Part shown: positions 16,181 to 42,903 of the stretch, in pieces
How positions within the stretch are numbered: the first letter of the stretch is position 1
How the letters are laid out: every line of letters starts with the position of its first letter
Assembly (NCBI RefSeq): GCF_964204865.1
Contig: NC_135255.1
Location: 10,817,135-10,881,134 of the forward strand
Reading direction: 5' to 3'
From: Styela clava
Taxonomy: Eukaryota > Chordata > Ascidiacea > Stolidobranchia > Styelidae
Length of the DNA stretch: 64,000 nt
Notes under the pieces: generated by a model
Told to the model about the DNA's origin: nothing
Databases searched by the model: none
Seen by the model: the letters and a program-made list of their open reading frames with translations, nothing else
Translations under genes and position numbers: made by a program

Positions 16181-18987
16181 ATGAGAATTCGTTTACAAAT
16201 TCTGCTTGTGTACATATCGATTGCTGTGGTAGCCTCAAGTTATGAAGATGCCCATCAAAACAAAAGCAGCAGTACAAGTGCTAATGCTTTCAACTTCGAT
16301 TCTGAAAACGGAAGCGGTAGCAGCGACGTAGCTTTCAACTTCGATTCTGAAAACGGAAGCGGTAGCAGCGATGACGAAATTGTTCAAGTTAACTTGGAAA
16401 CTCAAGAAAAAAAGAAAATCAAATGCCCGTTTCACGGTCCTTATGTTTCTGTGCTGAACAATCGTACAGAAGAGCTCAATTGCTGCGAATTCATAGTAGA
16501 TGATTTTCCTTATGACTGGTACACAGGTGGATATTATTTACACACTTTTTTTGAAAAACTGAAGTTATGGAAGTGCCCCGAGTTTGGCAAAGTTTGTGAC
16601 GACCGACTTTACGCTAGGTTTTCGGAGTTTTCCAATCTAGTCTACAAGTACCACTGCGATCAAGATGAGTTTCGTGAAACATGCAAATCTGTTGTAGCAG
16701 ACGCTCGCAAAGTTTCATCCGAGCTTTCCTGGGATGTCGTCACTGCAAATATGATATCATCAGAATTTAAATTGGAAGATTTGGTAAAGCCTTGTATGCA
16801 AGTTGCAATTTATGGCTCCAGATCTGGAGGATATGGATACTACCATGAGATAGTTGACGCGTTTGCACCTTTCTGTGATATCTCATGGTGCGGATTCGAT
16901 GCAAAAACAATTGAAGAAAGAGGAATAACTAGTTGGGATTGCATTACTTCTGGGTGAGTATTTTTTATTAAGAAAATTTACTCAATGAAAGGTCAGGCGC
17001 ACCCACTTAAAAATAAAGAAATTTTGATATCAGGGCGGAATTTTACGCGAAACATAAATTGTATTTTCAATTGATAAAGTATGCCTAAATGAGACAACTA
17101 TACACACTGGAAAATAAATCAAGTTACATTAGCTTTGCTGAGTGATTTCAATCTTATGAGTTACTAATGAATTTTGTCCCCCAATCGCACATTGTGTTGT
17201 ACGTTATATGATCAATATAAATAAAGATAATTATTATTTAGGTAATGTTCTCGTTTTTAATTTTTTATATTTCGAAAGTTGTTTGTTCTGAATGAGTATT
17301 CTACTTATTGTCTAATGCACATACAAAAAAATGCATAATAAGAAATTGACGTGTCATTTTGCTTAAAGCAAAAGTATAAACGTTTAATTGAAAGTCAAAA
17401 TTATTTTCTTGTATTCTCTCTATTGTTTTTTATTACATAAATTGCTAAATATTACACCTAATTGGTTATCTAACCGCGTAGTTACAATCCTCAATTAGTG
17501 AATTTTCCATTTTGAAGTTAGGAAATGTATCATATAATTATACTAAATTTTGCCTCAACAGATGTCGGGTGAACTTAATCGTCTCTGCTGTCGTCTGCGG
17601 TATACTTGCCATCATGATTGTAATCGCGAATATCACCGTCATCATCGTATTTACAACAAGTCCAAAGCTACGTAATAGTCAAGCTGTGTATAAAATATCT
17701 CTTGGTATTGCTGATATGTTGGTTGGGTTGTTTGTTATTCCAACCTTTATTTCTTCGTTGATATTGTTGTATAAATCTCCAGCAAGTATGGGAGAAATAA
17801 TGCATAAATCACAACCAAATAGTGAGGGAACCTTGCCCAGAAAATCAGGAGGAAGATTTAGCCAACGTTTTTCCATGGAGTACGTTGACTTTGTAGGATT
17901 TTTTACTATACTCTCTCTAGTTGTATCGATTTATACTCTCATGATGGCTAGCTTCGATAGATTTATGGCAATACATCAACCTCTCAGGTATGGACGACAT
18001 AACGCGAAGAGAATAGCTATATGGACTTCAATTGTACTCTGGGTATGCGCGATTCTTTTTTCTGCAATGCCCTATTTCGTTCCGGAAATGAGCTACGGCC
18101 TTTCGGCGTCTATTATGGTGGCTTCTCAAGGAGAATCGGCGTTGTATTTATACGTCGTCGCCATTGTTTTGCCACTGCTTTTTGTATGGATTACAACACT
18201 TGCCACATACTGCTCAACGAAAAACCATGCACGAAGAAGACAAACCTTGACTATACGACGCAGCAACAGTGGAGGTACAAGCAACTTGCATAATATGGAA
18301 GCCAGACTTGCACGAACGCTTGCCTCAATGGTCGGTATTTTTACGCTGTGCCTACTTCCAACAGCAATTATTTTGATCGTACCCTTTTTTCTTAGTAACA
18401 TATATCCACACCTACCGGATATGTTTGATCCTTCAGCGAATAAAATTGTTATGTCATTCGAATTTGTGGCAATTTTGATTCTAATGACAAACAGTTTATG
18501 GAATTGTTTCATCTATAACGCCAGAAATACTGATTTTAAGAACACCACCAAAGAAATGTATAGGTTGTTGCTATTCAGACTTGGTTTTGGAGTTTTCTGG
18601 AAAAAAACAAGGACTTTTGCTACCTCAACTACCCGAAGCCGGCAGTCAACATTTGCTATGACGCGTAATCAAAACATTCGAAAACACAAAAAGTTGCATA
18701 AGAAACCTTCCGAACTCACTCTCCGTACTCTTTCATCCCAAGAACACCATAGTGGCGGGCCTCCTATATCCCCAATGACGCCCACGGGAAATGGGTATGA
18801 GTTTGGCTCGACTTCGGGAAACGAATACAGATATACGAGAAATAAAAATGAAAAAGTGAACAAAACTTTTTCATCAGAAAAGGAGACAAAAACTGAAGAC
18901 GATAAGGCCGATAACGATCAGAAAATTGGCAAACTGATTGAAATTGATAGTGAAATTACATCCACACAAATTCGTGACGTCGTTTAA
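16181..18987 (+). CDS. Receptor 1: secreted cysteine-rich ectodomain joined to a class A-like 7TM GPCR (two exons)
   Basis: Predicted cell-surface receptor of 732 aa. Exon 1 (16181-16953) encodes a signal peptide, an acidic Ser/Gly linker with a tandem 15-residue duplication, and a domain with 11 cysteines (motifs WYTGGYYL, WKCPEFGKVC, RFSEFSNLVYKYHC, KPCMQVAIYG, PFCDISWCGFD, TSWDC). Exon 2 (17562-18987) encodes all seven helices. The donor TCTGG|GTGAGT and acceptor CAACAG|A give a phase-2 junction reading TSG-CRVNL. The 7TM part keeps N1.50, D2.50 (SLGIADMLVG), R3.50 (DRF), W4.50, P5.50 and P6.50. It lacks Cys3.25, an ECL2 cysteine, Asp3.32 and Trp6.48 (CLLP), and has NSLWNCFIY for NPxxY. 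ECL1 is long and basic (PRKSGGRFSQR), ICL3 has ARRRQTLTIRR, and the tail is about 150 residues. TM2 resembles aminergic receptors, but the ligand cannot be an amine by the usual Asp3.32 salt bridge. Ligand and G protein are unknown. Confidence 0.85.
16286..16375 (+). repeat. 45-bp tandem duplication inside receptor 1 ectodomain
   Basis: Two adjacent copies of a 45-bp unit (16286-16330, 16331-16375) differ at only a few bases at the end. Each encodes AFNFDSENGSGSSD plus one residue. The near identity at DNA level indicates a recent duplication. It lies before the first ectodomain cysteine, so it lengthens an acidic, Ser-Gly-containing stalk without disturbing the cysteine-rich domain. Ser-Gly in an acidic context is the kind of site used for glycosaminoglycan attachment; that use is only inference. 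Confidence 0.95.
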
Positions 18988-21900
18988 ATATGCCCTTGAA
19001 AATTTTTTTATCGGTCATATGATGACGAGTTCAAATAACTTGTCCATAATGTGAATTTATTTCAGAGCACGAGTAAATTTCATGAGGTGGTAAAGAATGG
19101 AAAATGCAGACATTCATACTTTTGGCTTAACGTTTTGTTGAGCATAGTCAATGCTATATATAAATACATATCCTAGATCACTTTGTACGTGCATTTCATC
19201 CATTAGGAATGTAAAAGATAATTAACATATCGTTCACGGCAAACGACGTACCTTATTACCAATCGAAACCAACATGTATTTATATATTTGTTTGAATTAA
19301 TGAGTTTGAATTAATATAAATTAATAATTAATTAATTTAAATTAATATCAAATTAGCCAATTATAAACTGTTATATTGCTTATATTTGTTCTGCGAAGTT
19401 TTGCTTGCACTTGCAAAACTATTCTGGTAATTTTTTCTTTATATTCATCTTACCATACATTTAATTTTTCAAATATTCTAATTTTTGATAACAACATTTT
19501 ATTCAAATTATATTGTATTATAGTGATAGAAATGAACCAGTATAGCGTGATATTAGGACAGGTAATTTACTTGGATATTGCATATAAGGCAGATTTTTTA
19601 GATATTTGATATTGTTCGTTGATAGTATTACTCTAATGATTTGTAGCATCCGTCTTTACTGATACCGTTGATTGATTATGTCCCAGGTGCACATCTTGAG
19701 GAGTTGTGTATAAATATCGTCATTTCCTTGTAACTACTGAAATAACTTGTCGTAAGACCTTTAAACACTAAGTTAAATGCGTATTCTATTTTGTTTATTT
19801 CAGCCATTGTGTATGCATTCGTGACATTAAATCGTGTATGGACTGATTTTATTCTCATCATGTATGCTAAATAAAGTATTTATATATTATTCCTTCTAAC
19901 GATCATAGTTTTGTTCTGAGTAAAATTTAAATATGATGACGACGGAAATATCATTCGATTTTGAATGGCACAAAACTTTGATTTTGTTCGATTTGCATGG
20001 TTTCATACAGTGAAGATGGGATTGGTGTTGTTCAATAGTTCTTCTCAGCATTGTTGTTGTTTTTGCTGTATCAAATGTTCGCTGGTTTTTCTGACTTTCC
20101 GACCCCTTTCGCGGTAGCTTAAAGGTGACGTATTGCGAACAATTCGAATTTGATTCTGTATATTTTTTCAAGATTTTTGGCTGCTCACATAAAGTGGACT
20201 TTGTTTTGAAAGTCAACTACCAGAAATTAATTAGTGTGATCCGTTGATGACGTCGTACTGCGAAAAGGCATTCAGACATGGCATGTAGACTATATTTGAA
20301 TTAGCTGATAAATATATGTTGTGGTAATTTATTCCAATGCCTGTTCGATGTGTTGTAGTTCGTGGCTACTGAAGAATTCACAATGACGATCTGTATTTAT
20401 ATGAATTCCCTGAGCATGAAACAAGGAGAAAAGTATGACATTTTTTTCAACTAACCTCTTTTGATTTTCCCATGAAACACACAAAGACATCTAATTTGAA
20501 GCGACCATTTAAGCCATATGCGACCATATGTTGAAGTTGTTCCAAACTTCTGCACTACAGTCCAAAACAACAACACCTCAAATAGGTTTTATTTCTATTC
20601 TGGTATATGACATTCCACCATGCGATTACAAGTTTTCTATCATACAGAATTTATTAATTTCATTAAATATTTCCTCATGATTCTCGATGGTCCGATGCCT
20701 CGTGTTATATATATAGCGCTGACCTTATAAGGTCGGATTTATCATTCCAGACATTTCACTGCAAACAAGGCTGTATGAGCTTCCACTAATAAACAAGGGA
20801 CAACTCTATTTTGGATGTACCGAAAAGCTTTAGATACAGTGATGACCGGACCTAAACGATTCTCTTATTCTGGAAACGACACGGAATTGGTATTGGAAGC
20901 TTACATTTTTTCTAAGCATTCTCCGTCATCATTCCACAAAGGATTAGTTCGTGGTGTGCCGGAGGAAGTACAATGGGGATGCTATGAAATTGACAATGAT
21001 TGAACTTGAACATTTCGCAGCGCTGGAGATCAGTAACATAAGATTGGTAAACTTACTAAGTATCGTATACCAGTGGAATCCCAGCATTGTGTTGGTGTGT
21101 ATGGATGAAGCAATCCTCCAATCTTTTTTTCAGTTAACATTATTATGCAACAAAACAGTGTTGGATGCTGAGCATCACTTATCTGTCTGTCGATATCATC
21201 CTGTACTCGTGTATGCTATTTTTATTATTTTAATTCGTACAGTACATGCTTTCCAGGTCACACTGCTATTAACAACACAGTCAAGCTAGGTGTCAACAGC
21301 CGTCTTCCTCGACACTACTTTCATATTCGAAGCTACTCATCCTTTCCATACACTCCGGTACTCAAATATTTAACAGATCCTGAATCTGTAGTATATGAAA
21401 ACATGAAATGCATTCATTTATTTCATCAGTCTGAAGTTGGTTAATATAACAGTGTGACTTGATAGCATCATACCTCGATCGAATACTATATCAAACAGCC
21501 GAGAAAGGAAATAAAGTTGTAAAAACTGACTTCAGAATCTGTTTTTCAAATCCCATGTTAGACTGATAGTACCGGTATGTCCATCACATAATATTTTATT
21601 GCTTGATTGCCTGAGGTCCATTTTTTATGTATTTCTGTTCACCCCTACTTTATTGTTTTAAATTTTATGAAACTACATGACGATGGAATTAAATACAAAA
21701 AACAGATATTGAACAACCTACTCGTGAATAGTTACGGAAAGAGTTCTGAGTATTACGCCAACAGAGACCGTTTCCGAACTGCGGTCAATTTTGGTTAAAT
21801 TTTTTCATTTAAATTGGTAGAAAATGAAACAAAGCCGACTTCATTTAAATAAGGAGAATTCAAAACTGTGCTTTTATCGTGGATCAATAAGTGTGTTTCC

Positions 21901-22315
21901 ATAAGCAATATTAGTTGCGCAGACTAGGACTCGCATTTTTATATGGTTAACGATGTGACAAATCCTAGTACGTCTTAGTCCCTCACCGGGCCTAGGCTCC
22001 AGTAGGGTTTAAAACGTATTTTAAATTGAAAGGTGTTGTCAAGAGAAGTAGTACGTACGGCCCCCCCAAACGTTTTAAGGTAATTAAAAAACGCACGTAC
22101 ACACATACACATACAATCACACAGACAAAATAAAATCGGAAGAGAGAATAAAGAAGAAACATAAGATATATTATATAAAAAAAATAGACATAAAGAAAAT
22201 GAATTGTTACCCATGATCCTAATTTTATTTGTTTAGTAGGCTACAGGTGTAAATAGAATGAAATATATACCTATATTCCATCCATATTTCCTCCGGTTCT
22301 TTTTCGGTTTCCTAG
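18988..22315. other. Intergenic region, no gene recognised
   Basis: AT-rich non-coding sequence, including a TTAAT-rich stretch at 19285-19360. ORFs at 20815-21289 and 19896-20216 show no recognisable family motifs. They are listed among rejected items. Confidence 0.4.
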
Positions 22316-22432
22316 TCAGTCAACGCCAGTAATGTCCCCAGCCTCCTTATTCTTCTGGTATATACCCAGATCACTAACGCCTGTACCATGTACCGCATAG
22401 AAGAACGCTAACAAAGTCCATACGCTAGCCAT
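22316..22432 (-). CDS. Possible short secreted peptide (38 aa), speculative
   Basis: The frame begins MASVWTLLAFFYAVHGTGVS, which looks like a signal peptide with a cleavage site near HGTG, followed by about 20 polar residues (DLGIYQKNKEAGDITGVD) and a stop. Directly before the ATG is a splice-acceptor-like run (TTTAATAATATTTTTAG|AATG). This would suit an internal exon start or a trans-splice site. There are no cysteines or dibasic sites, no recognised family and no neighbour that explains it. It could equally be a chance ORF. Confidence 0.2.
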   Translation of the reverse strand: MASVWTLLAFFYAVHGTGVSDLGIYQKNKEAGDITGVD

Positions 22433-22732
22433 TCTAAAAATATTATTAAACAGAAAGAAAAAAAAGAAATTTAAAAAATAGCTGCAAGAATAAGAAACAG
22501 CAATTACCGTATACGTATGGTATAGCAGATTGATAAGCAGTGGAGAGGGAAATCCCAAAGACCCAGTCAGGGAAACACAGCTAATATTTAATTTCATATG
22601 ATAAGGCTACATTCTACACGATATTTCAATGAGGATGTATATGCCATGGAGTTCTGTGCATTTAACGAGAGATGGCGCCGTTGAGTTATTCATTCTAACC
22701 GTAATCTAACGGGAAACCAACTGATAGACAAA

Positions 22733-23100
22733 TATGTTGAGACTTTTCATTTTTTGATAAGCTTTTCTCTTTATTCACAGGACGAATTGCATTGCATTTT
22801 TCAGTGGTTGTATTTGTAACGATTATATTTGTCGCTAGACGGCTATTGCTTATTTGCAAGAATTACTGCGTGCTCTATGGCATTGCTATGAGATTCGTTT
22901 TTTATGCGATGACGTCATTAACAAAAAAAATGACGCATCTTGTGGCGATTCGCGTTCACTGCATTCTGGTGATCAGGCGAAGTCGTTAAGACTACGGTAC
23001 CGGATGTATGCCGTGAATGATTGCATACCCGTACTACTTCGCTTTGCTTTCGTGTTCATATATATATTCAAGCATTGTCCTCTTGTTACTACTGTGATCA
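22733..23100 (+). repeat. TGGACACG-family repeat, right part
   Basis: It contains the core GGACGAATTGCATTGCAT, TTTTTCAGTGGTTG and GATGACGTCATTA, and ends TTGCTTTCGTGTTCATATAT, ATTCAAGCATTG, TCCTCTTGTTA. That end is the same as at 8290-8345 and, inverted, at 40876. The TGGACACG left end is not present or is too diverged. Confidence 0.55.
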
Positions 23101-25770
23101 CGAATAATTTTTACTATAGCTTGGAATCTACAAGTATCAAACGGTAATTTTTTTAATTTCTCAACAGTAGATTTCTAATCAGTAAATCATGTACACACGC
23201 CTTTATATGATTGCTAGCATGGATGTGACTTATTCATGGGCGATCTATCACGCCTCGATCTGTTCAAACTCTATCATTACATTCTAAGTGCATAAGCGGT
23301 ATAAATTAATTATGTGATTATCAGTTCATCACGTTACTTCTAAGATATCTTGTCTATTTACACAAAGTATATCAATGCAATAAATTGGTGCCTAAGTTCG
23401 CTCAATAAATATTTATCCTTTAAATTATTGATTCAATCGTTGTAGGTACGCAAATATAATTTTGAAATATCTTGATAACTTTACAATTATGACTAACATT
23501 TTGAATTACGGGTAGACCTAATTATTTACATAAAATCAAATTGCGATACTAAAATAAAGAGATAATATATTTTTATCACATCAATGCTAAACAACTGCCA
23601 CCTAATTAATGCATATTTAAATACCATACCATTCGGAAGGTTAAATATGCGGACTATTCGATTTACATTCCGAAATATCTTTATCATACTAAATGTTGGA
23701 AGCTTTTTTGTGCACAAGTCTATTTGAAGCATATCAAAATGCATGATCATACGTGCAATCGGCACGAAGTATGATTGAGATCAGAAGAATTGCGAAACAA
23801 TACGTTTCAAGACAGAAGTTTTCCAGCTAGAACATCCGTCCTCGACTTCAATCAATCAAGTTGAAATTAAATGGGAAACGATTCAGAATATTAAATTTAT
23901 GTAATATATCTTTATTGAAACTTGGAGAGGAAGTTGAACATACTGTAGAAAAATTTACCTCAAATTTACAAAACAATTCATGAAAATATTTTGTCAACCA
24001 TTAGTGATAAATTCTTCAGATGTAAAGATGTAGTAGCACTGTCGATAAATGTTTTCAGTAGCTATCACATTTGGATCACCCAGTAGATCGCAACTTACAA
24101 TTTAGCCTAAACGTAATTTTGATTCCAAATTTTTTATCGTGACAAATGAGTTTTGCAAACTTTCGTGATAATCAATACATTCTGAAAATACATGATTGCC
24201 AACTCTCGAAACATCATTCGTAATAACTGTATGTCTATGTAAAATGAATAAGCCTTATTATATCGAATAAAAACTATTGCTTCTGATTCATAGGCCAACA
24301 AATAAAATGACGAAGTATTTGCACCTGCTCTGTGGCAGTTAATGTATGATGATTTTAAAAGAACACTGTAATCACGTTAAAAGCTACGTTGAAATTACAT
24401 TTACATACATTCTGAACATAATATAGCTTATTACACTTTAAAGTTTTCTTGTAATCTATCAGTAAATTTAAACGTTTCAAGTGCTTAAAAAGCAAAAATA
24501 AAAAAAATAGTTAATAAACTGGAAAATATACAGACAGAAATAATTTCGCATATAGAAATAGAGTGTAGCTTATTATTAGTTATATTTATATTTGGAAATC
24601 CTATTAAAAAATACATACACTTTTTTCAAACATTTACTTTTCTTGCACAGTTATGTGTTTGAATAAGGTGAGGTAAGGCGGTAAAAATTAACAAACAAAT
24701 GGAAATCAGATATGAATTTCTTCTAATCAGTTTATCAACTAAACATGATCAAACTGAAAGTCACATAAACCAGTTTTCGTTTAAATTGAAAACATTGTAG
24801 AACTAGATCATATTACCATCACTTTTATGACATTAAACGTAATATGATAACACTTTCAGCGTTTATATGTCAACAGTGAGATTATCTTGACATTTGCGTG
24901 AATATTCAAACGGAGCAATATTTGAAACGTCCATAAGAATAATTTTTTCTAAAGTAAGTAATATCATCAACATCTTGTACATAATAAAATATATTATGAA
25001 ATATAAATTTTTTATCATTTGCTTTAAACAACGATCAGAACATTACACGACACACTGTGAACAATATGATCATTGTGTGAATAAATTTGTAGAAAACTGA
25101 AGCGTAGTAAATTGTTTAGATTTAGCCATCTTGGTTGTGCCAATCTTTTTGATCTTTTGCAACCATATACTTAGAAACAGGCACCTATAAAGAAAGATCT
25201 GTTTAGAAAAATAATTGTTTACATATTGAACTTTTTGAAGTCGACCATAAGTTTCACTCGACATCGAATGATATCCACAACCTTGACCTATAGCATATGG
25301 ACGTGAGACAACTGTTGTTTATGACAAAATAGTATGATAAATAGTTTCATAGAAGTTCGATTAATGACAAAAAATTGATACTTGAAACATATAGGCTACA
25401 ATGAAAAAGTACCATTTTAAAACATATAAATGAAATATAATAAAAGTATAGTTTTACTGAAATCTAATTTATAAGCAATGTATTTTTACTTCTATGTACA
25501 TAAAGACAGGTCCAATGTTATGTAATATCAATTTGTGAATACATTAGAAAAGTCCAAGTGCACACATAGAGTGTCTACTTTAGGTTTTCATTTGGCACCT
25601 GATCAGATACACAAAATACGGTTCATTAAACTCCACTAAAAACGCGAGGTGAACTTCGTCAGAGTCAGTCAAGTCAGACTAATTTAGTATTACATTTTGC
25701 TTTGAAATATGAAAATTCTTCATTGCATGACAAGCAAACAGATATTCTCGAGTAACAATGAATTTGTTCT
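23101..25770. other. Intergenic region, no gene recognised
   Basis: Very AT-rich non-coding sequence between receptor 1 and the 3' end of receptor 2. Small ORFs only, with no motifs. Confidence 0.4.
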
Positions 25771-28700
25771 TCACTTTTGGACTTCATCATTTTTATCTAA
25801 TTCTGCATTCTGAACGTTATTATTTTCCTGCTTGACCATTTTTTCCGATTTATGATCTAAATCGTTTTGCGTTTTATCGTCTGCGAGCTTGTCCGGTGTG
25901 TACCTGTATATATTGACAGGCGAAGTCATGCTGGTTTCAGATAATTTTCTATCGTATGTAACTCCATTTGCTTCCCCCGCACTTCTCTTTCTGCGCCCAG
26001 ACCGCTTTTCTGAAGGTCCTGCGTGAATCAACTGAGTACTAATAGTAGATCGCCTACCACGCACTGTTGATGTTGCAAAACTCCGCGTTCTTTTCCATAT
26101 AACGTTAAATCCTAACTTTCGCAGCAGTGTGGAGTATAGCAGTTTTGCAGCTTTTTTAAAATCGTCGCTTCTGGCGTTGTATATGAAACAATTCCATAAG
26201 CTGTTAGTCATAAGAATGAGAATTGTTACAAACTCGGTTGATATGAAAATTTTGCTTGCCATTGGGTCAAAGTCACGTGGATAATCATGATACAGATTCC
26301 CAAGAAAGTGTGGAACAATTAATATCACAGCTGCAGGCAATAAACATAAAGTGAATATTCCAACCATCGATGCAAGAGTTCGAGCCAATCTTGTTTCCAT
26401 ACTCGTAACAGGCTTTGTGCTGTTATCAGAGCTTTGGCGACGAATTGTCAGCGTTTGTCGCCTCCTTGCGTGCTTTTTGGTAGACATGAATGTAGCAATT
26501 GTTGTGACCCATACAACAATTAGCGGAATAACTACAACAACTGCGTATAGAATAAGAGCAGATGTTTCTTGAGATGCTACCATGATAGAAGCTGCTAATC
26601 CATATGTCATTTCAGGAACAAAAAATGGCATAGCGGAAAATAATATTGCGACAGACCAAAGTCCCAAAGATGCCCATATTGCAAGTCTCTTAGCATTATG
26701 CCTACCATATCGCATAGGTTGGTAAATTGCTAAGAATCTATCAAAGCTTGCTATCATGAGAGTGTATATAGAAACTATTAAAGACAATATAGTGAAAAAA
26801 CCAACAAAGTCAATATACTCGGGCGATGTACGTTGTTTGAATCGTCCTCCAGAATTTCGTCTCAACGTTCCTTCGCTGTTTCGCGGACTGTTTTTCCAAA
26901 CATCTCCCATATTAACTGGAGATTGATAGAGCAGCAAAAGAGTTGAAACAAAGGTCGGCAATACTATCACGCCCACTAATAAATCTGCAATTGCTAATGA
27001 AATTTTGTACACTGCTTGGCTGTTTCTTAACTTTGGGCTTGTTGTAAAGACGATGATAACAGTAACGTTTGCCAAAATGATTGCCAAGGCTAATAAAGCA
27101 CATACGACTGAAGATATCACCAAATTGGTTCGGCACCTGAAATGAAATTTACACATATTTAAGCTGGGTTTTCATTGTAACATTGTGTAATGAGGGAAAA
27201 TTACAGTATTCAAGCATATTAATTAATAAATTTAGTCCGATTTCACTATATTGAAGTTTAGCAGACAAATATTTGTTCATCTTTTATTGTGACCGTAATC
27301 CGAGTAGCAAGAAAATATAGGAATTTACTGATTAAGAATGATGCTTTTATATGAATAGCGTATCAACCATGACGTATAAAACTGTGAAGAAACAGTTTAA
27401 AATTATGTATCGTGTATTTATAGTTTGTAAATAATTGTTAGGTTTGTTGGCAATGTAGACTAATTAATGATTATCCGTACTTAGCAATGGAAAATTGCCC
27501 GGAAACACGAAATTAATGTATTTATTGCCGATCATTAGTCACATTGTGACGTCACATAGTATAATATAGAAGAAATGTTATGTCAATGTGTACACACTCA
27601 ACATCGTGACTGCGCTCAATGATGACGATACAAATATATTTCATCACAAATTATCAGCTCTAACTTAGACCGTGCCATAAGAATAAAAAAAATTGTTTGT
27701 CTGACAAAAAATTCTAAAATCTATGTAACAGAATGTGAATTTTAAAATGAATACATCACTTTAATGTGATATTTACTATAAAATTATTACACCGGAAAAA
27801 AATTCAAAATATATCGGTATCTATTAAAACAGCATTGTGTTGAATTCAAAAAACGAAATCGCAAAAGAGATTTATGGTATACAAGTCAATTCACCAGCAG
27901 TCGAGACCAAGTTACAATTTTTTATTGAATTTGACGATTTGTCAAAACACATGCCCGCATAATTCAAAGCAATGATGAATCACCTTTATACCAGTCATAC
28001 CCAATAACTCTAAATACGTGATTGTCACCCGAATTAATGTCATTCATAAATCTTAACATAGTTCAAAATTGATCATAATGGCTGCACCAACTCTCATGTT
28101 ATCCACATGTGTGCATGCAAAGATATTGTGAATTCATGTTAAAAGACTCAATCAATCAATCAAATGTAGATTATTCTGTTTGAAAATATTTGTGCATTTT
28201 TGCTATAAAAGGTATAGGCCTATAAGGTTTATACCAATATAATCTATTTTTTCATTTCCAGTACAAATAATTTGTTCCATGAATGCTGGTATTCGAAGAA
28301 ATATATTCGATTTTCAATACCAAATGGCTAGTTCTAAATTTATACTCATACACGCAATCACGTAAAAATTTTGTCTGTGACGTATGCGTGACGCATGTTT
28401 GTGCAAAAATGCGTGATTACCACGTTCACTGGCGTAAAAATAAAAAAAATATTATTTGTCTATTATAGCCTATTTCAAACTAATTTGGGGTGTTTCATGA
28501 TACTATACGTGAATTGAAACCTAAAGAATGAAATAGCTCCGAGCAATTAGCTAGATGCTTGGTCGTGCTATTTAACAAAATAATAAAAAATATATATATT
28601 TGCCTATTTTCATATTTCACCCCGGATGCAGATGATGATCCATCCCCTCAATCAATGCATATCGTATTTTGAAATTTCATGCCTATTATACTATATCACA

Positions 28701-30360
28701 CTGAAGACTTCACAGTTGTTAATAATTCGTTTTACTGAAACTCTGTTTTCATTAGTCGTGCTGTTGTCAATGAGGCAACTTTTTGGTGCGAAAACCATCG
28801 CCTTTCTTGGTAGCCAAGGAACCAATGTATTCAGTAATTAAATGATGGTTAAAAGTAGTTGCCAGATCGGCATTACTTTTTTGTTTATTTTTTCAAATTT
28901 CTTGTCCTGAGTGTGCTATTCAGCCATAATTTCGCTGTTTCATTCTAATTCATGGGAACACTGTTTTTATTCCGTCAAGCGTGGCGCTCTTGCTCAGTTG
29001 TTCCGACGTGCTACTCGAACAATCGCCTTTACTTACGTTGATTAAACAGTGGACAGGTAGTTGTTTACATATTCATTTTTAGTAAGTGCATTTGTTTTTG
29101 ACAAATATAAATTGATCTAAAGTCTAACTCTAAACCATTGCAAGTTCAATTTAAACCTCCTCCACAAAATTGAAATACCCGCACCGATAGAATACATAAA
29201 CGACATAATGACATGGTAGGTGGATCAAATTTAATGGTGGAAGCAGCTATGGTGCGGTATAACCTTACTTGTAGTTTGTATTGACAAAATTTCCGGAATT
29301 TTACCATAACCTCATTCCAACGGGCACCGGTATCTGCATATATACATCCCAAACATTACCACCGGTAACGGTAAAGTACTAGGATGATAAATGATGTAAG
29401 CGTTCTTGATTTTAAAATGATAAGCGCAGTCAGTAGTCTTCAACGTTAAGCTAGTATCATAGTGGGAACTAGTAACGAGACGATGTGGCTGAAATTTGAC
29501 GAGTATTTTTATGAAGTTAGTTAATTCGACACTTTGTTCTCAGATTACGGCAATAGGGGAATACGTTCAAAAACTTTGATGGACATGTAATTAGGCGTAA
29601 AGGCTCCGCTACTGCAGTTAGTCATTGGACCTTAGTGCCCATTTATTTTATCATTGCCCTCTTATTTTACATTTATTAAACCAAAATCAGCTCACCCTGG
29701 AGTCATGCAATCCCAACTGGTAAGTCCTCTTTCTTCAATAGTGTTGCCATCAAATCCGCACCATGAAATATCACAGAACGGCACATATACGTCAATTACT
29801 TCATGATAGTATCCAAACCCACCAGAAATTGATCCATACATTGCAACTTGCATACATGGTTTCACAAGTTCCTCCGTAGTGAATTCCGACGACGTCATAT
29901 TGTATCTGACGTAATCACATGTGTCATCGGAAGGAATTTGGCGCCCAGGTGGAATTACTTGGTCACATTCTTTTATAAATTTTTCAGGATTGCAATGAAA
30001 CGCATACACGAGACGGGAGTATTCTGAAAATCTTGAATATAGCATTTCATCGCACACTTCTTTGAGTTGTGGGCATTTTGAAGCTTTGAGCTGCTCAAAA
30101 AACTTTTGCAAGTAACTCCCTCCTGAATACCATTTTGACTTGAACCCCTTTATAGTTTTTGCACAAGCTCTTTTAGCCTTGTTTGAAATTGGGCATCTCA
30201 GAACAATTGGTATCTTCATCGTAGCACCAATGCTCTTCGAAATATTTGTTCCAGCGGCTTCTGGAGTTATGGGTAAGGATGGCTGACGAGCATTCACTGT
30301 TTGAGAGTTGGCAACAGCAAACAAACACGAGCACGCTACAAAAGCTTTACACAAAAGCAT
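25771..30360 (-). CDS. Receptor 2: cysteine-rich ectodomain joined to class A-like 7TM GPCR (two exons)
   Basis: Closest paralogue of receptor 1, predicted 676 aa. Exon 1 is 29696-30360 and exon 2 is 25771-27136, with a 2.56-kb intron. The donor ACTCCAGG|GTGAGC and acceptor TTTCAG|GTGCCGA again give phase 2 and a TPG-CRTNL junction. After the signal peptide (MLLCKAFVACSCLFAVANS) the ectodomain has WYSGGSYL, SKCPQLKEVC, RFSEYSRLVYAFHC, KPCMQVAMYG, PFCDISWCGFD and TIEERGLTSWDC. One cysteine of the CC pair is replaced (KRAC) and one extra cysteine (TCDY) is present. The 7TM domain shares with receptor 1 the long basic ECL1 (LRRNSGGRFKQR), DRF, CLLP, NSLWNCFIY and ICL3 ARRRQTLTIRR. The tail is basic (SGRRKRS), with a conserved FATST.R.RRST patch. 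Cys3.25 and the ECL2 cysteine are absent. The ligand is unknown. Confidence 0.85.
27137..29695 (-). other. Intron of receptor 2
   Basis: A 2559-bp GT-AG intron, AT-rich. It contains a perfect CRE-type palindrome TGACGTCA near 27549 and a TGGACACG-family fragment near 28895-29020. No exon-like frame inside was recognised. Confidence 0.7.
28895..29020 (+). repeat. TGGACACG-family repeat fragment
   Basis: It contains ATTTCGCTGTTTCATTCTAA, TTCATGGGAACACTGTTTTT, TCAAGCGTGG and GCTCAGTTG, matching the middle of the copy at 6850-7205 in the same order. Confidence 0.5.
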
Positions 30361-34330: not shown

Positions 34331-34890
34331 ATGGCGGATTGCACCCATGAAAATTTATACCCACGGTCATTTTCAGCCACGAATATTTGTGTTTCGACAA
34401 AATTCGTCTATTTCAATTATGTATCAACTGATTTAGTTTTGGGCAACATTGCACTTTTAACGAGCACGAGGCTTAAATGGCATTTGCCACGTAGCGATGG
34501 GCATACCAACGAATAAATACGAACTCGTTGCAAACTACTTACGATTTTCATTTATCAACTTAGTCAGCAATATGTGGAAAGATTTCCATTATCTTTGAAC
34601 ACATGTACATTTGCACCCGGGACATATGCACATGTATACTTTTTCACAAGGGACAGTTTCAACCATACATTTGGCCCGCCGATTCGGCACCCACATATAG
34701 ATTCCATCCATGGGCAGTTGCACCTACAGAAATTTGCACCTACGCTACGCACATTTGCACTCACTTACATTTGTACACATGCACATCTGCATCCTCTGAT
34801 ATTTGTACCCGTGAAATTCACGCATATGCATTCGCCTCATGAAAATCTTTACTCGTGAATATTTGCACCTACATACATTTGCTCCCACAT
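34331..34890 (+). repeat. Degenerate short-period array rich in ACATTTGCACC
   Basis: Between about 34600 and 34890 the motif (A)CATTTGCACCC/T recurs with variations many times (ACATTTGCACCCG, AAATTTGCACCTAC, ACATTTGCACTCAC, ACATTTGTACACATGCACAT, ATATTTGCACCTAC, ACATTTGCTCCCAC). Weaker versions begin near 34345. Spacing is irregular, so this looks like an old, eroded minisatellite. The Thr/Cys/His-rich ORFs across it follow from the repeat and are not genes. Confidence 0.55.
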
Positions 34891-37556
34891 CATGTTTGCT
34901 CGAGAATAGCTGTATTTCAGACAAACTTCAATAACCAACTATAAATGTGCTGTACATTCTAAATGAAAAGGGGATCACACATTTCAATTAGCCTTTATTC
35001 TGGATGAGGGTCTCTACGTTTTTACAGTCATTGCAGGTTATATTCCTATCTCACTTTTGTCTGTCATTTTCTTTCAATGAAAAAACGCAAACGTAGGCAA
35101 ATTTACGGTGGTTAGTAGACGATGGAAATGAAAACTAGTGGTAGATAAATTATTCACTTCGATGTTGAACCAATTGTACAAGTTATTCGCGAGCGAACAT
35201 GACTGTGGGTAAAATGTATGAAAGTGCAAGCATACGTATATGCGAATGTCCATGGGTGCATGTACATGGGGGAGTACCACGGATAGAAAGATAACTGAGC
35301 GTTCTAAACTTGTGAACGAATTCCACCAAGTGACAGAATTATGGCAGACAGTGGCATTATGTCGAAAGAAATGAATGTCTACAAAGGCGTCCCAGTCAAG
35401 GCACCTCACCTATTTTGAAGTAACCTTAACCTGTTCCTCTCTCGGCGTTACTTATTTGGGTATCCATATATGGTTCTAGGTTGGAAGATTATTAAGAGTT
35501 AATACCTTATACGTCTTATCGTGGACGTTTGTAGTAAACACAAGCAATAAAATGCTTAGCATGTGTCTTAAGTGATCCATTTTATTCTTGGCACTATACT
35601 GTTTTCAAAAAAAATTCTTCTACCATGCACTGTGGTTGGGTGATGTAATTTTAAATAAGAATAGCACGTAAAAGCATTCGTGAATGTCGCTGTGACGACA
35701 ATTATTGGGTTGTTTACGACTTATGCTGCGCTAATTATGATCGACAACTACTGCATTTGCTGTTTTTCTAAGCTTTTATGCAGTAAATAATTAGGGAGTG
35801 ACGTCATAAAATCGTCACGTAAGGTGGTGAATTTGCAAATTCCGTAAATACAATTGTGAATTATTCGGTAACTGTTTTGGCTATGACAATGGCTGTGGTA
35901 TTGTTTTGTTGGAAGATAACACAAAAAACGATCAAAATAAAATTAATTACCTATATCTAGTGCTGAACCCTCTATCAGACGAAATAAAATTCAAGTTCAA
36001 AGTTGTTTTCTGCAAATTTTTGGATATAAAATTGCATAGGTAAAAATATATTGGACACGCGCCCGTTAGCGTCATCTCGCGGAAATGAACGCCGACATAC
36101 GCTTTTGAAAAGTCGTGTGTGCCGTTTTAGGGCCTAATGGTTGACTTGACGATGATGAAAAATTTGAAAGAGACCATACAAAATGGTCCCAGGATACAGA
36201 GTTTTCTCCAGGGAGAGATAATGTTTGACTGTAAAATTGCATCAGCAAGAGAGACTGAATATCATGAATTAGAGGAGACATAAGGGAATACATTCTGAAT
36301 TAGTATATTAGAACAAGTAGAACTATCATACAGCATTTGGTACCTGTCGCATTTGATCGCCTCGGTATCCTATAGTTTTCGAACCCAAAAATGAAACTAT
36401 AAAAAAAAACATTGAGAATATTGGCGCTTGGTATTGGTGATTTCCTTAACTTGGGCAGCAGGTTTTCCAACAATGCACTTTGGATGTTTGGTTGTATTAA
36501 AATGCCGCTCGGAAAACAAAAATTTAAAGACGTAAATTAACAGCTACAGAAGACCTAACTTCCACCGCCGTCCAGTGCGGACAGACGTGCTTTATACTTG
36601 TTGCAGTTGAAAAAACGAATAGGAGGAAATAGGACAGGATATACCGATCATTACATTTGGGATTCGACGTGGAAACGAAGGAAATCCATGTATATATATT
36701 TGGCCATGTATTACATACAGTTTGCCGCCCAGTGCTTTATGACATAACCTAAAAGTTATCTGTTCATTTCTTGCAGTTTTCCATGTTACAGCGGCCCCCT
36801 TTCGGTTGTAAAGGAACCAGAGGGGCCATTTTTCTTTACACTTAAATTAATGACTACCGAAAAAAAGTTGATGGTATAGTGCTTTAATGCTGTTTGAAAG
36901 TCCATCGACAAAACAGAATTCTTCCAGAGAATCATTCCTTTTCAAACTCTTTGAAACCATGGAATGACATGCCGCAGCATTATAAACGCTTTTCGGCTAT
37001 TCATATGCATGCAAATCCGTGTTTTCACATATAATATTCTTAATATCGCGTGTCAAAAATCGCCCAATCTCTAGATAGAAATTATTGATAGACATAACTA
37101 AAGTATGTGCGAATCTCAAAACTACATCATATTAGGATTATGAGATTTGCGGAAAATATGCAACATTATGTCTCTCACTCGTGAATGTTAGTAAAGGTAG
37201 ATTTGTTATCACTACTAAGATGCAACAAACCTAGGTGTTTTTGTGTATTTAATCAGAGTTTTGTTCAATCGCCTACTCATTTCTTCTAGCGGCTCTTTTA
37301 CTAAATAAGGTCGCTATTCTATTTGACTAGTCTAATTTCAACATAAACGGTTACATTCAACGGTAAACCGTCGGTAAAATTCGCAACTGGTAGGCGGTAG
37401 GCAACATTTGTTATAGGTAATTGAAAATTATATATTACACCGAAGTTTTTATCGAATTCAACCTAAATATTAACAAAACAGAAATTGTTATCGAAGGTAT
37501 TCATGCTTCCCATCATTGACGAATCAAGTTAAATAAAACCAAGGATATCACCAGAC
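34891..37556. other. Intergenic region, no gene recognised
   Basis: Non-coding sequence. A TGACGTCA site lies near 35812, next to an inverted TCGTCACG. Nothing else could be supported. Confidence 0.35.
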
Positions 37557-37985
37557 TTTTCCATGGGAATGGGACTCGCATGGGAAACGTCTTATGGGAT
37601 GGGATTTGTATTTCCCATGGAACGCAAAATCGGTATGATTTTCGGGAAAAGGATGGTGAAACATTTCGGTATGGATTTCGTGCTCATATATTTGATCATA
37701 GCCCTCTTGTTAGTTATAAAGAGCAAAATATATTCAGCATTGACAATATACTTTGCGAAGGGGCTAATGGACACATGTATAATAGTTATGTATATTATGA
37801 ATTCCGTAAATTTTGTTGTTTTGCATGTCTCTTCGTATATGTAGTCCTATTTAGTAGACTCTAAACCAAAATTTAATAATTTTTATTGAATTGTATTCTA
37901 ATGTGACTCCCATGGGATGGGATGGGACAGGCATACTTGCGATGGGATGAGAGCGGGAGAGAAAAATATGCCCCATGAACAAGCC
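37557..37985. mobile_element. Possible non-autonomous element with G-rich GGGATGGGA ends
   Basis: The left end (37557-37625) contains CCATGGGAATGGGACTCGC, ATGGGATGGGATTTG and CCCATGG. The right end (37905-37985) contains CCCATGGGATGGGATGGGAC and GATGGGATGAGAGCGGGAG. Such G-rich blocks occur nowhere else in this AT-rich window. Part of the interior (near 37680-37725) matches the right end of the TGGACACG family. Boundaries and class are uncertain. Confidence 0.4.
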
Positions 37986-39857
37986 TGGATATCAAACCAA
38001 GGTAGTCCGTACAAACAAATATTTACTGCCTGATTGACCACTCGCAACCCAACGGTGAAATAATATTGCACATGACGTCATGATTACGGTCGCAAAAACT
38101 TTGCCACAGGCACTGTAATGTTTATGTTATTATTCAACGTCCCCTTCTCACCATTTCTTATAGTTAGATATAGTATAGCATTATCATATATACTACATTG
38201 TTTATAAATAGTCGACACTTTATGAAACTTAAGCAAGATAGAGAATATAAAATCCGTGCGGATTCTGTCAAATCTTGTATATAGATGTTATGTTTTGATA
38301 TGGATTTATCAGAATGCGACAAGATTTACTATAAAAAAGCAAGATCATAACAATCTAACAAGTAATTGTGGTGTATGTTTCCAAAATGATATATTAGTAC
38401 TATCTGGCTCTAGTTTACTAATCAGATACATTTAGTTTTCTTTCGATACCATGGCGGCAGTAAAAGAAGGGGAATTGATAGCATTTCAAATACGTGTAAG
38501 CTATTTTATGAAATGTTGAATACCGAAGAAAAACAATGCGTCTAGACAAGTAAGCAAGATAAAACGATTTTTATCGACTTCTTTATACAGCTGAGGGCAC
38601 AGGGATTGTCAACATAGTAAATTGTTCAACTTCCAGTACAAAAAACTTTACTGAGAAGACTCCGCATTCGAGCTTAAATGCAGATCGATTGTGTAAAAGT
38701 TCCTTTTTATCTAGTACTTAATTTTCTTTGTGAATGTTTGAGCATTATAATACGCTTGTGACCTAATAAAAGTCTCTCGCCATGGTCTTAATTTCCTAAT
38801 TTTTGGCATGTCTTAAGTTTGGGTTACTTGTGCTAATGCTTTATCAACATTTAAACTGTACGACTTGATAAATATTTTTAGAATTGCCGCATCAATGAAA
38901 TAATCGAGATATAAGTGGGAAATAACCACACTATCGTTTACTTTATAATGTAAACTGTACGGGCTATTATGTACGATAATAAGAATATCTTAAAATGACT
39001 TTAAATTCATCAGCATGTCACTCCTTACTTATAGTATAATTCGATTTTTTTTGAAAGGAGAAGCATAATTGTTTATAGTAATTTTACGTACTTCCTTCCG
39101 GACGTGAAATTTCTTCACACTATATATCTTGCGTTTACATGCTAATTAACACACCATATGTGCTTATAACATTATGTAGTCAACGTAATGCAGAATATTC
39201 GATTACGTCATTATACTGTTAGAAAATCAGAAATTTATGTAATATAAATAGCCAATATGTCTCCAAAATTTAAAATGAACATTTTTCGGGTACAATATCA
39301 AAGTTGAAAGTAATGGTGCCGATGCGATGATTCAACAATAAGTAATAACGTTTTACATTAACCACTCTCCAATTTGTTTTAGTTTAATTCAATAGTCGGA
39401 TGCATTATGGTGATTGATCCCAAAAAGTTAGAAAACCTAGGATATATTGGTTGTGAGCAATCAGTTTATGTGACCCATTGCATTCAGCAAAAGCGTTAAT
39501 TATCGTGCTCGAGAAATAAATTATAGTTACTACTGCTATTTTCAGATGTCTTTCACGAATGCCATTATTTCTAGAAAAATTGCTTATAGATATGAATTTA
39601 TCGATGCTTCCGGGATGAATTCGGAAAATTAGTGCTTACAGTTTGAAGTAAAAACACTGATATTTTTGAATAGTCTACGCATACTGCTTATGAAGTAAAT
39701 GAACTACAAAAACATACTTTTAGCTTCTAATTTATATATTACATGCTGTCATTTGATGCGTCTGGAACGAGCTATTCGTCATTTTAATCGGTATTTATTT
39801 CCTTTTGTTATTGTCTTAAAGCAGTGAAACTAATGCCAGTGTTAGTGTTAGTCCAAT
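37986..39857. other. Intergenic region upstream of receptor 3
   Basis: AT-rich non-coding sequence with a palindromic CATGACGTCATG near 38072. No exon was recognised. The segment just upstream of 39858 should hold the promoter and leader of receptor 3. Confidence 0.35.
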
Positions 39858-42800
39858 ATGGAGAAGGTTCATGGAAAAGCGTTGTTTTTGTTTCTGTTAT
39901 GCGCTGCATATCTCGCAGAATACACATGGGCTGATAAAAAGAGTAAAGGGGTGACTTACAAGCCTTCTAAAGTTTGTGAGAAAAATCATCCATTTATGAA
40001 GAAATATCCTCAAGTCAAAAAGACATGTTGTAGTTATGTTAACGGGAAAATGTCTAACGGATGGACAGCAGCAGGATATCACCTCACTTCATATCTTTCA
40101 GATTTAGAAGCATGGAACTGTACGGAATTCTATGATGAATGTGTGTATCGACCTTATGCTTTCACAAACTTTACGAAAGCTGTTTATTCGAGGTTTTGTA
40201 ACAAAACGCAGTTCATGTCGCAATGTTTTTCGTCAATATCAAAGTTGCATCACGAAAACAATAATATTTCGTATGATATGAAATCAAGGAATATTACAGT
40301 CACAGAAGCTGACTGGATATCGCTCATTACACCGCTGAGTGATCTCAGCATTGCCGACTCCTCGTTTCAGGAGCCATGTGTACAAGTAGCAATGTACGAT
40401 ATACCCGAACGTGGACCGTATCATGAAGTTATCAATGTACTTGTTCCATTTTGTGGATTTGTTTGGTGTGGGATGGGAACGAATGTAAATGATTTTGATG
40501 GGGTATCGGATTGGACATGTCTGCCTACAAGGTAATTTTTGAACTGTATTCTATTATCATTAAGCTTCTTAAATCATTATAAAGTATGATGTGTTGTATG
40601 ATTACTATTGTATAACATTGTTGTATTTATTATTGCTTCTTCTCGTTGAACATGTTTACACTCTCGGAAGGATATTAAATTTAGCGTGTAAACGGAGACA
40701 TTCATACGCAACTCCATTTAAATCGCCGACCAGATAGGACGCCCAAATTTGATATGAAGAAAGTACAAAAGTCACTTGTATTCGTTTCACGTTTATTTTT
40801 TAATATAGCTTTAAAAACTTAATCTTCGATAAAAATTTTGAAAGTTCAAATAGATCGTAGTAATCCCTATTTCATACATGAGAGCTATGCTCAAATATAT
40901 GGACACGAAAGCCAAAACAAAGTAACATACTGTATAAGCTTTTAGTCTGTCCACGAGATCGCTGAAATGCAGTGCACGGAACCAAGACACGGTGCACGTT
41001 TTTTTTTATTGTAATGACGTAAAAGTAATAGCCCTTTAGCAAAAATACAATCTTTAACCACTGAAAATTTCAAATCAATTGTTCCAGTTTTTAATTAAAA
41101 AAGACATTTTTTCGTAACCATAGGAAGAAAAATACCAACAACCTAACAAAACGATTCATATGTACAGTTTGTGTCCAATAACCTAATGAAATTACTACTC
41201 TTACTCAGAGCTAAGTAGTGTCCAGCAGGTCACCACGCCCGGAAAGGAGAAATGCCATTCCTTCAACCATATAGCAAACATATATCACGACTCAGCTAAA
41301 AATTAAATGAGAATACGTGTTTCGTACAGCTGACATGCTGACATGACTTGTTTAACATTAATATTACGCATGCTAGGACTTAAAACTTTTTGACCTCTGT
41401 ACATATTTTTGTATCCGTAAATAGCGAAACATGAAAAATCCGTTACTTCATGTTAAGCTTAATGACGAGGTTCTATATAGGTCACGATTTTATAGTATAA
41501 AAGTTGCTTTTCCATGTTTTCATCTTGATATGAACTATGAATGGCTCAGTTATACTTGAAAACCTCCACATATTCGCCATTTTTTCTCAACATTTATGAG
41601 CTAATTTTTATTTCTACAATGGTCTTTTATATTTAGATGCAGAGTCAATATGATTATAATCGTAATAATCATCTGCGTCATGAGTGTGTTTGTGATCGTT
41701 GCAAATACTGTCGTCATTACTGTGTTCATGAAGAGCGAAAAGCTGTGGAATGGACAAGCCTTGTACAAGATTTCCATTGCCCTTGCTGATTCGCTAGTGG
41801 GCGTCGTGGTTCTGCCATCTTTTGTATCTACATTTTACTTATTTATTTGGCAAAAACATAACCATAGTGATAAGATGTGGACCATGCATTCGCATCAAAC
41901 TGATAATGCCTCAGAAGAATCTTCTGGATACCTGAATTCTGTCAGCCTCGACCGTGATTTCATTTTTAGCGACAGTGAAAGGGCTCCATTGTGGTATTTT
42001 GATTTTGTCGGGTTCTTCACCACTCTTTCTCTCAGCGTTTCAGTCTACACACTTGTGGCTGCGGCAATTGACAGATTATTGGCCATTGCAATGCCCATGA
42101 ATTATTTTAAACACAACACGAAACGAATTGCAAAGTATGTAATAATTTCTATATGGATAATAGCCGCGATATTTTCTATTATTCCTCCTATTGTTGAAGG
42201 CTTGGAGTATTCGGTTGTAGCTTCAACATTGATTTCATTATCAGGAGGCAATGCCCCAATAATATACGCTGTCATTTTTATACTACCACTTCTTACAGTT
42301 TGGGGTACTAGCATTGCATTATTTATTTCAATGAAGAAGCATGCAAAAAAAGCAAAGGAAGTGAGGAATCATAGTGCTCCAACAAACGAACTTCAAACTA
42401 AAATTGAAAAGAAATTGGCCCAAACTCTTGGATTGATGGTCGGTATTTACACCCTCAATCTCTTCCCCGCAATCGCTGTGTTAATAGCTGGTTTAATATG
42501 GTCGAATGTACATTACAATAACTTAGAAGATCTTAGTGAGGTCAGTGCATCAGCCTATATTTCACTGGAATTTTTAGCGGTGATTGTGCTCATGTCAAAT
42601 AGTTTATGGAACTGTTTTATATATAGCGTCAAAAATGAGGATTTCCGCAACGAAGCTCGCCAAGTGGTGAAGCGCTCCACTGATTTACGGAGACTATTGA
42701 CTAAGAAATTTAGAGCAAATGATACTCCAGTTGTGTATAACAACTATCGTGAACAGACAGTTGATTTTGAAACGCAATTCACAAATCCAAATGTACTTGA

Positions 42801-42903
42801 CGATAATGGTGTTACAGCGATGACCAACGATGGTGCTCTCAATGCTACAGGTTCGCCCAACATGAAAGCCAAACCAATATTTGTTAGAAGATATACTGAA
42901 TAA
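39858..42903 (+). CDS. Receptor 3: diverged member of the cysteine-rich ectodomain 7TM family (two exons)
   Basis: Predicted 646 aa. Exon 1 is 39858-40531 and exon 2 is 41637-42903. The donor CTACAAG|GTAATT and acceptor ATTTAG|A give the same phase-2 junction (PTR-CRVNM). The signal peptide is MEKVHGKALFLFLLCAAYLA. Eleven ectodomain cysteines are in the family order (VCEK, KKTCCSY, WNC, DEC, RFC, SQC, EPCVQVAMYD, VPFCGFVWCG, DWTC). Several N-glycosylation sequons are present (NCT, NFT, NKT, NIS, NIT). The 7TM part has D2.50 (SIALADSLVGVVVLP), DRL, LFP in TM6 and NSLWNCFIY. Cys3.25 and the ECL2 cysteine are absent. ECL1 is long but acidic and lacks the basic SGGRF patch of receptors 1 and 2. 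ICL3 is also different (KKHAKKAKEVRNH), so ligand, processing or coupling may differ. Confidence 0.85.
40876..41186 (-). repeat. TGGACACG-family repeat in the intron of receptor 3
   Basis: The plus strand reads GCTCAAATATATGGACACGA, AAGCC, TTAACCACTGAAAATTTC, AAATCAATTGTTCCAG, AACGATTCATATG and TTGTGTCCAATAAC, the exact inverse order of the family. It is the clearest copy with both ends (TGGACACG and TGTCCAATAAC) inside about 310 bp. Confidence 0.7.

What the first reader, a model, noticed from the sequence alone, without database searches (positions are those of the whole stretch)
16181..42903. A local family of GPCRs carrying a large secreted-type cysteine-rich ectodomain
Three genes share one architecture: exon 1 is a signal peptide plus a roughly 200-residue cysteine-rich domain, then a phase-2 intron at the same codon, then a single exon with a complete class A-like 7TM. 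Each junction restores frame to a Gly/Arg-Cys-Arg-X-Asn motif. The cysteine order is conserved (C, CC, WxC, VC, HC, C, PC, PFC, WCG, WxC, then the Cys after the junction). I know of no described receptor family pairing this ectodomain with an aminergic-looking 7TM. A distant link to Frizzled/FRI-type CRDs is possible but I cannot show it.
Basis: partly seen in the sequence, partly recalled or inferred. Interest (0 to 1): 0.88.

Follow-up and report, generated by a model that had tools for sequence, protein, structure and literature searches.

The report
Sea-squirt receptors with new sensor domain
A sea-squirt-type genome carries a family of about twenty cell-surface receptors that join an ordinary-looking signalling core to a large cysteine-stapled outer domain matching no known domain we could search, so the animal may have a receptor type nobody has described.

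Summary
Three window genes have a signal-peptide plus cysteine-rich exon, one phase-2 intron and a 7TM exon. The genome has 18 such genes with the intron at the same codon, on six contigs, a broken 19th, and a divergent 20th (L050) whose ectodomain and TM1-TM3 share one intronless frame, showing the fusion in DNA. All 19 loci found by ectodomain queries also have a 7TM exon. The 7TM is rhodopsin-class in 18 of 18 but not aminergic: Asp3.32, Trp6.48, Pro7.50 and Cys3.25 are absent in 18 of 18. The ectodomain has twelve conserved cysteine columns and no convincing relative in Pfam, the PDB, the genome's own Frizzled domains or folate receptors. A cellulose synthase beside GH6 marks a tunicate. 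Best reading: receptors for secreted ligands captured by a new domain. Ligand, fold and presence in other species are unknown.

The parts
16181..16953 (+). Gene 1 exon 1: signal peptide, acidic linker with a 45-bp tandem duplication (16286-16371), cysteine-rich ectodomain
   Evidence: Open frame; GT donor at 16954; hydrophobic N-terminus; duplication
16954..17561 (+). Gene 1 intron, 608 bp, phase 2, GT-AG
17562..18987 (+). Gene 1 exon 2: complete rhodopsin-class 7TM and C-tail
   Evidence: 7tm_1 E 7.8e-29
29696..30360 (-). Gene 2 exon 1: signal peptide and ectodomain; first cysteine column and first place of the CC pair not cysteine, two extra cysteines elsewhere
27137..29695 (-). Gene 2 intron, 2559 bp, phase 2, GT-AG
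25771..27136 (-). Gene 2 exon 2: 7TM and C-tail
   Evidence: 7tm_1 E 9.5e-29
39858..40531 (+). Gene 3 exon 1: signal peptide and ectodomain
40532..41636 (+). Gene 3 intron, 1105 bp, phase 2, GT-AG
41637..42903 (+). Gene 3 exon 2: 7TM and C-tail
   Evidence: 7tm_1 E 6.7e-20

Best explanation
These are single-chain cell-surface receptors of the rhodopsin class. Each has a signal peptide, a roughly 180-residue domain with up to twelve scaffold cysteines (up to six disulfides, inferred), and a 7TM core that follows directly after an invariant cysteine at the start of TM1. Shown in DNA: the architecture, the shared intron position, one intronless fused paralog, joint divergence of the two halves, and purifying selection on both in recent pairs. 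Inferred: the outer domain is the main ligand-binding site, most likely for a secreted peptide or protein. Binding would shift the disulfide-anchored hinge at TM1, and the core would signal through G proteins, since Arg3.50, Asp2.50 and Tyr7.53 are kept although the usual Trp6.48 and NPxxY switches are replaced. Paralogs would differ in ligand, because exon 1 diverges faster (median identity 25% against 33% for the 7TM exon) while its cysteine frame stays.
For: Phase-2 GT-AG model at the same codon in 18 of 19 loci. 16 of 18 7TM exons have no in-frame Met upstream of the junction. L050 is one open frame across the junction; its ectodomain scores 33.8 bits against the family profile, best of 1000 shuffles 14.6. 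Mantel r = 0.896, 0 of 10,000 permutations. dN/dS in 4 recent pairs: ectodomain exon 0.28-0.38, 7TM exon 0.24-0.37. 18 of 18 match 7tm_1. N1.50, D2.50, R3.50, P5.50, P6.50, Y7.53 in 18 of 18. The WCG and CMP cysteines are lost together in L040, L041, L043, L044, L045, and the first two columns together in L047 and L048.
Against: There are no transcripts, ligand or signalling data. Tyr3.51, Tyr5.58, Trp6.48 and Pro7.50 are missing in 18 of 18, so coupling could be unusual or absent. Both ectodomain models are low confidence (pLDDT 49 and 45), so no binding site can be pointed to. The cysteine picture is not clean: L037 lost one scaffold cysteine and gained one elsewhere, L039 has one extra, and gene 2's double loss comes with two extra cysteines; the five-gene loss is one clade, hence probably one event. 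Nearest relatives by ectodomain and by 7TM agree for 13 of 18 loci, not all. Many 7TM exons have a Met 5-9 residues into TM1, so a separate start is not strictly impossible.
Confidence: 0.6

Rival explanations
1. The ectodomain is a very diverged Frizzled, folate-receptor or NPC1 type cysteine-rich domain, so the receptors are rhodopsin-class cores wearing an old lipid- or vitamin-binding fold.
For: Both low-confidence models are helical in the first half. A CC pair, a C-x6-C pair and an inferred first-Cys to first-of-CC pairing resemble the folate receptor (its disulfide map is recalled, not from a call; our pairing rests mainly on L047 and L048).
Against: hhalign against three Fz domains of the same genome: probability 0.1. 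Fz domains score at most 3.2 bits against the profile. Folate receptors: hhalign score 14.3, below at least ten of 60 column shuffles (up to 20.2), and not above shuffles in hmmsearch. No Fz or folate-receptor match among the Pfam and PDB results up to E 10 (the Pfam filters drop most matches above about 0.1). The Fz and folate profiles had only 3 and 2 rows, so sensitivity was low. NPC1 was not tested directly.
Confidence: 0.2
2. Each gene makes two products: the spliced receptor, and a secreted soluble ectodomain from intron retention, acting as decoy or ligand carrier.
For: In 17 of 18 genes reading on into the intron stops at once after the junction codon, giving a clean secreted ectodomain.
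Against: The instant stop is a mechanical result of a phase-2 intron with a GTAA or GTGA donor. AATAAA signals in the first 600 bases of the introns are not clearly enriched (17 seen, 12.6 expected).
Confidence: 0.15
3. The ectodomain is not a ligand sensor but an adhesive or self-activating element: it contacts other cells or hides a tethered agonist, as in adhesion receptors or PARs.
For: The ectodomain is joined to TM1 with no linker after the last cysteine; the stretch from 2.60 to 3.28, holding the first outer loop, is 23-66 residues long.
Against: No GPS or GAIN match among the Pfam results for 18 of 18 ectodomains up to E 10.
Confidence: 0.15
4. Ectodomain exons and 7TM exons are separate neighbouring genes.
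For: No RNA evidence of splicing is at hand; many 7TM exons have a Met 5-9 residues after the junction cysteine.
Against: All 19 ectodomain loci pair with a 7TM exon, 18 fit an intron at one codon, and L050 fuses both in one frame.
Confidence: 0.02

Closest known systems
Rhodopsin-class (class A) GPCRs, alpha-like (beta-adrenergic, adenosine A2A, CB1, histamine H2)
   Same: 7tm_1 in 18 of 18; the family profile matches beta-1 adrenergic receptor at 4e-28, then A2A, CB1 and H2 among the best 60 of 666 PDB sequences
   Different: No Asp3.32, Trp6.48, Pro7.50, Tyr3.51 or Cys3.25, no Cys in the stretch taken as ECL2, long ECL1, plus the ectodomain
Ciona LDLRR-GPCRs and LGR or relaxin receptors (PMC2396169, passages seen)
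   Same: Tunicate lineage-specific expansion of rhodopsin-class receptors with a cysteine-rich ectodomain
   Different: Those carry LDL-A repeats on a relaxin-receptor-like core; no LDL-A or leucine-rich repeat appears in the Pfam results here
Frizzled and Smoothened (class F)
   Same: Cysteine-rich ectodomain on a 7TM
   Different: Neither the Fz domain nor a class F core is detected
Flatworm-specific orphan rhodopsins (PMC6114109, passages seen)
   Same: Lineage-restricted orphan branches of the rhodopsin class
   Different: The passages seen describe no such ectodomain for them

Membership tests
Class A (rhodopsin) GPCR | Match to the 7tm_1 profile | tested here: met
   The three window genes score 72-101 bits against a cut-off of 30.5; 18 of 18 members match at E 0.001 or better
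Class A (rhodopsin) GPCR | N1.50, D2.50, R3.50, P5.50, P6.50, Y7.53 | tested here: met
   18 of 18 at each site
Class A (rhodopsin) GPCR | Trp6.48 and Pro7.50 (usual, by recall not universal) | tested here: not met
   0 of 18 and 0 of 18
Class A (rhodopsin) GPCR | Cys3.25 to ECL2 disulfide (usual, by recall not universal) | tested here: not met
   0 of 18 have Cys3.25; no Cys in the stretch taken as ECL2 in 18 of 18
Aminergic receptors | Asp3.32 | tested here: not met
   Thr in 16, Ser in 1, Met in 1 of 18
Frizzled (class F) | Fz cysteine-rich domain | tested here: not met
   No Fz among Pfam results to E 10 for 18 members; hhalign probability 0.1; sequence-level tests only
Frizzled (class F) | Class F 7TM | tested here: not met
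   Pfam families matched at E 0.001 are 7tm_1, Srx, Srsx and Sru only
LGR, RXFP or LDLRR receptors | Leucine-rich repeats or LDL-A modules | tested here: not met
   None among Pfam results up to E 10
Adhesion GPCRs | GAIN/GPS | tested here: not met
   None among Pfam results up to E 10
Folate receptor fold | Sequence profile similarity | tested here: not met
   Not above column-shuffled controls; only two receptor rows used
Folate receptor or Fz fold | Shared three-dimensional fold | tested here: inconclusive
   Models with pLDDT 49 and 45; Foldseek finds 0 matches at E 0.001 or better
Functional GPCR | G-protein or arrestin signalling | not testable with these tools
   Needs cells

The most novel reading that the evidence does not exclude
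A tunicate-lineage receptor class: a previously undescribed 12-cysteine domain was fused to a rhodopsin-class core that lost the standard disulfide and activation switches, then spread to about twenty genes, so that ligand capture and perhaps activation work by a route unlike known class A receptors.
Probability: 0.4. Interest if true: 0.78.

Novelty: new variant of a known kind. Interest (0 to 1): 0.62.

Why it matters
From general knowledge, rhodopsin-class receptors rarely carry a folded ectodomain; where they do (glycoprotein hormone and relaxin receptors) it defines the ligand class. A family of about twenty with an unrecognised domain, in a close invertebrate relative of vertebrates, points to an unknown ligand system. 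The classic switch residues (Trp6.48, Pro7.50, Tyr3.51) and the TM3 cysteine are gone while Arg3.50 is kept, which makes it a natural test of which switches a class A receptor needs.

Tried and rejected
Frizzled origin: hhalign and profile tests against three Fz domains from the same genome, no signal. Folate-receptor origin: no signal. Aminergic receptor: rejected. Free-standing ectodomains: none among the matches of four ectodomain queries, though that tool scores only its best candidates; the L050 ectodomain query found only itself at E 1. Intron polyadenylation signals: not clearly enriched. Mitochondrial COX1 for species identification: no match. Shared ectodomain in L051, L052 and L069: profile scores at noise, so only their 7TM kinship is claimed. 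L049 was left out of the 18-row alignments and the 18-gene counts. Of seven pairs tried for dN/dS, three with undefined dS in at least one part (L041/L045, L043/L044, W1/W2) were left out of the range.

Full report
What is there. The window lies on contig C6 of a 376.6 Mb genome. Each ectodomain exon ends in a GT donor two bases into a codon, and each 7TM exon begins one base before a Cys codon after an AG; joining restores G-CRVN, G-CRTN and R-CRVN. No further copy was found in the window at E 0.001.

The family. A six-frame search with gene 1's ectodomain gave 19 matches at 17 loci; gene 3's, with the limit at E 1, gave 20 matches at 19 loci; L047's gave 18 matches at 18 of those loci. The 7TM of gene 1 gave 25 matches at 22 loci. 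The tool scores only its best candidates, so these are lower bounds. I fetched 19 regions. All 16 non-window ectodomain loci have a 7TM exon downstream on the same strand. With the three window genes that is 19 loci; 18 give an uninterrupted model with a phase-2 GT-AG intron of 194-3948 bases at the same codon. The script looked only for phase-2 donors near the end of the ectodomain and took the acceptor next to the conserved Cys codon; the chosen donors match at least 5 of 6 consensus bases and the acceptor AG is present in all 18. Nine of the 18 lie on C6, the others on C1, C2, C8, C13 and C14. The 19th (L049, C14) breaks off inside the ectodomain; a further piece with an in-frame stop lies nearby, so it is probably a disrupted copy.

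The intronless relative. L050 (C10:14745000-14753000, minus strand) holds a signal peptide, an ectodomain ending YNCMPKYCR, and TM1 to the DRY motif in one open frame of 433 codons with no intron at the junction. Its ectodomain scores 33.8 bits against the family profile (best of 1000 shuffles 14.6) and its TM1-TM3 part 106 bits. By itself this ectodomain finds no paralog at E 1, so it is a distant member. A further match at C4:349265-349645 spans the same junction in one frame but could not be fetched. TM6-TM7 of L050 were not recognised in the 8 kb held. Three more relatives (L051, L052, L069) share the 7TM only, at this sensitivity.

One gene, not two. Ectodomain and 7TM exon identities across the 18 loci correlate at r = 0.896; none of 10,000 permutations reached it (maximum 0.576). 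The nearest relative is the same by both halves in 13 of 18 loci. 16 of 18 7TM exons have no in-frame Met upstream of the junction, though many have one 5-9 residues after it. In four recent pairs (three of them from one trio) dN/dS is 0.28-0.38 for the ectodomain exon and 0.24-0.37 for the 7TM exon, so both look to be under purifying selection. All 18 start with a hydrophobic stretch like a signal peptide by a simple hydropathy scan (no dedicated predictor was run).

The 7TM. All 18 match 7tm_1; 15 also match the nematode chemoreceptor family Srx (best 3.3e-9) and 10 Srsx, both weaker. The family profile's best solved relatives are beta-1 adrenergic receptor (4e-28), A2A, CB1 and H2, which places it in the broad alpha-like part of the class without naming a subfamily. 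N1.50, D2.50, R3.50, P5.50, P6.50, N7.45, N7.49 and Y7.53 are present in 18 of 18. Cys3.25, Asp3.32, Tyr3.51, Tyr5.58, Trp6.48 and Pro7.50 are absent in 18 of 18; the stretch taken as ECL2 has no cysteine; the 2.60-3.28 segment is 23-66 residues long (numbering set by me from conserved anchors). L050 keeps DRY. That some class A groups (for example melanocortin and cannabinoid receptors) also lack the TM3 cysteine is recalled, not tested.

The ectodomain. Twelve cysteine columns, counting the one at TM1, are shared, each by 13 to 18 of 18 genes. The WCG and CMP cysteines are lost together in L040, L041, L043, L044 and L045 and never singly; the first cysteine and the first of the CC pair are lost together in L047 and L048. 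These are two clades, so two events, each suggesting a disulfide. Gene 2 (W2) also lacks both of the latter, but has two extra cysteines, one ten columns from the first, so it could be a shifted cysteine instead. L037 is an exception: it loses one cysteine (PFC) and gains one elsewhere; L039 has one extra. Pfam up to E 10 gives nothing shared by more than 2 of 18 members (best single value 0.0043, TGF_beta_GS in one member), and the PDB gives one chance match at E 1. Frizzled and folate-receptor comparisons are at noise, with few rows on their side. So the fold is open, and a known fold beyond sequence reach is possible.

Host. The genome's only reported match to the glycosyltransferase profile PF13632 lies about 2 kb upstream of its only reported GH6 match, with hydrophobic coding sequence between them, read by eye. 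A cellulose synthase joined to GH6 is, by recalled literature, a tunicate hallmark among animals. The species is not identified.

What it does. Shown: the architecture, its conservation and selection on it. Inferred: ectodomain ligand capture and G-protein signalling. I rate about 0.97 that these are single-chain receptors and about 0.6 for the whole mechanism.

Known or new. The Ciona survey (PMC2396169, passages only) reports LDL-A receptors with a novel layout and 23 unplaced "Other Rhodopsins"; the present family could be among the latter, which I could not check. The amphioxus survey (PMC2246102, passages) reports new domains in adhesion receptors. The survey of close relatives of animals (PMC12716839, passages) shows no such pairing in the passages seen. 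Seven searches of the open-access library listed no paper on this architecture, judging by titles and abstract starts; one search listed 12 of 418 papers, 20 of 21 and 10 of 13, the others all they found. Preprints and most subscription papers were not covered. I therefore call it a new variant of a known kind, with absence from other databases untested.

Noticed in passing
L050:2037-3314 (C10, minus strand): Divergent paralog with ectodomain and TM1-TM3 in one intronless frame, retaining DRY; the junction intron may have been gained or lost.
   Followed up: partly
L051, L052, L069 (C5, C3, C3) and C4:349265-349645: Further distant 7TM relatives, some with cysteines just before TM1; L051 has a TCIQMA stretch like the family's PC-x-Q-x-A motif. 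May mark an older, larger clade.
   Followed up: partly
L049 (C14:12797500-12805000): Nineteenth copy, ectodomain frame broken, probably a decaying gene.
   Followed up: partly
window 16286-16371: Perfect 45-bp tandem duplication in the linker of gene 1, adding 15 acidic, Ser/Gly-rich residues.
   Followed up: no
window 4011-6040, minus strand: hAT-type transposase pieces (DUF4371 and hAT dimerisation region) in two overlapping frames.
   Followed up: no
window 1109-1909 and 9829-10647, minus strand: Two similar short-chain dehydrogenase genes, each with the domain in one open frame.
   Followed up: no
intron donors of 17 of 18 family genes: Intron retention would end the protein exactly at the junction codon, giving a clean soluble ectodomain.
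   Followed up: partly
C9:16177301-16180164: Cellulose synthase type glycosyltransferase next to GH6, the recalled tunicate hallmark.
   Followed up: yes
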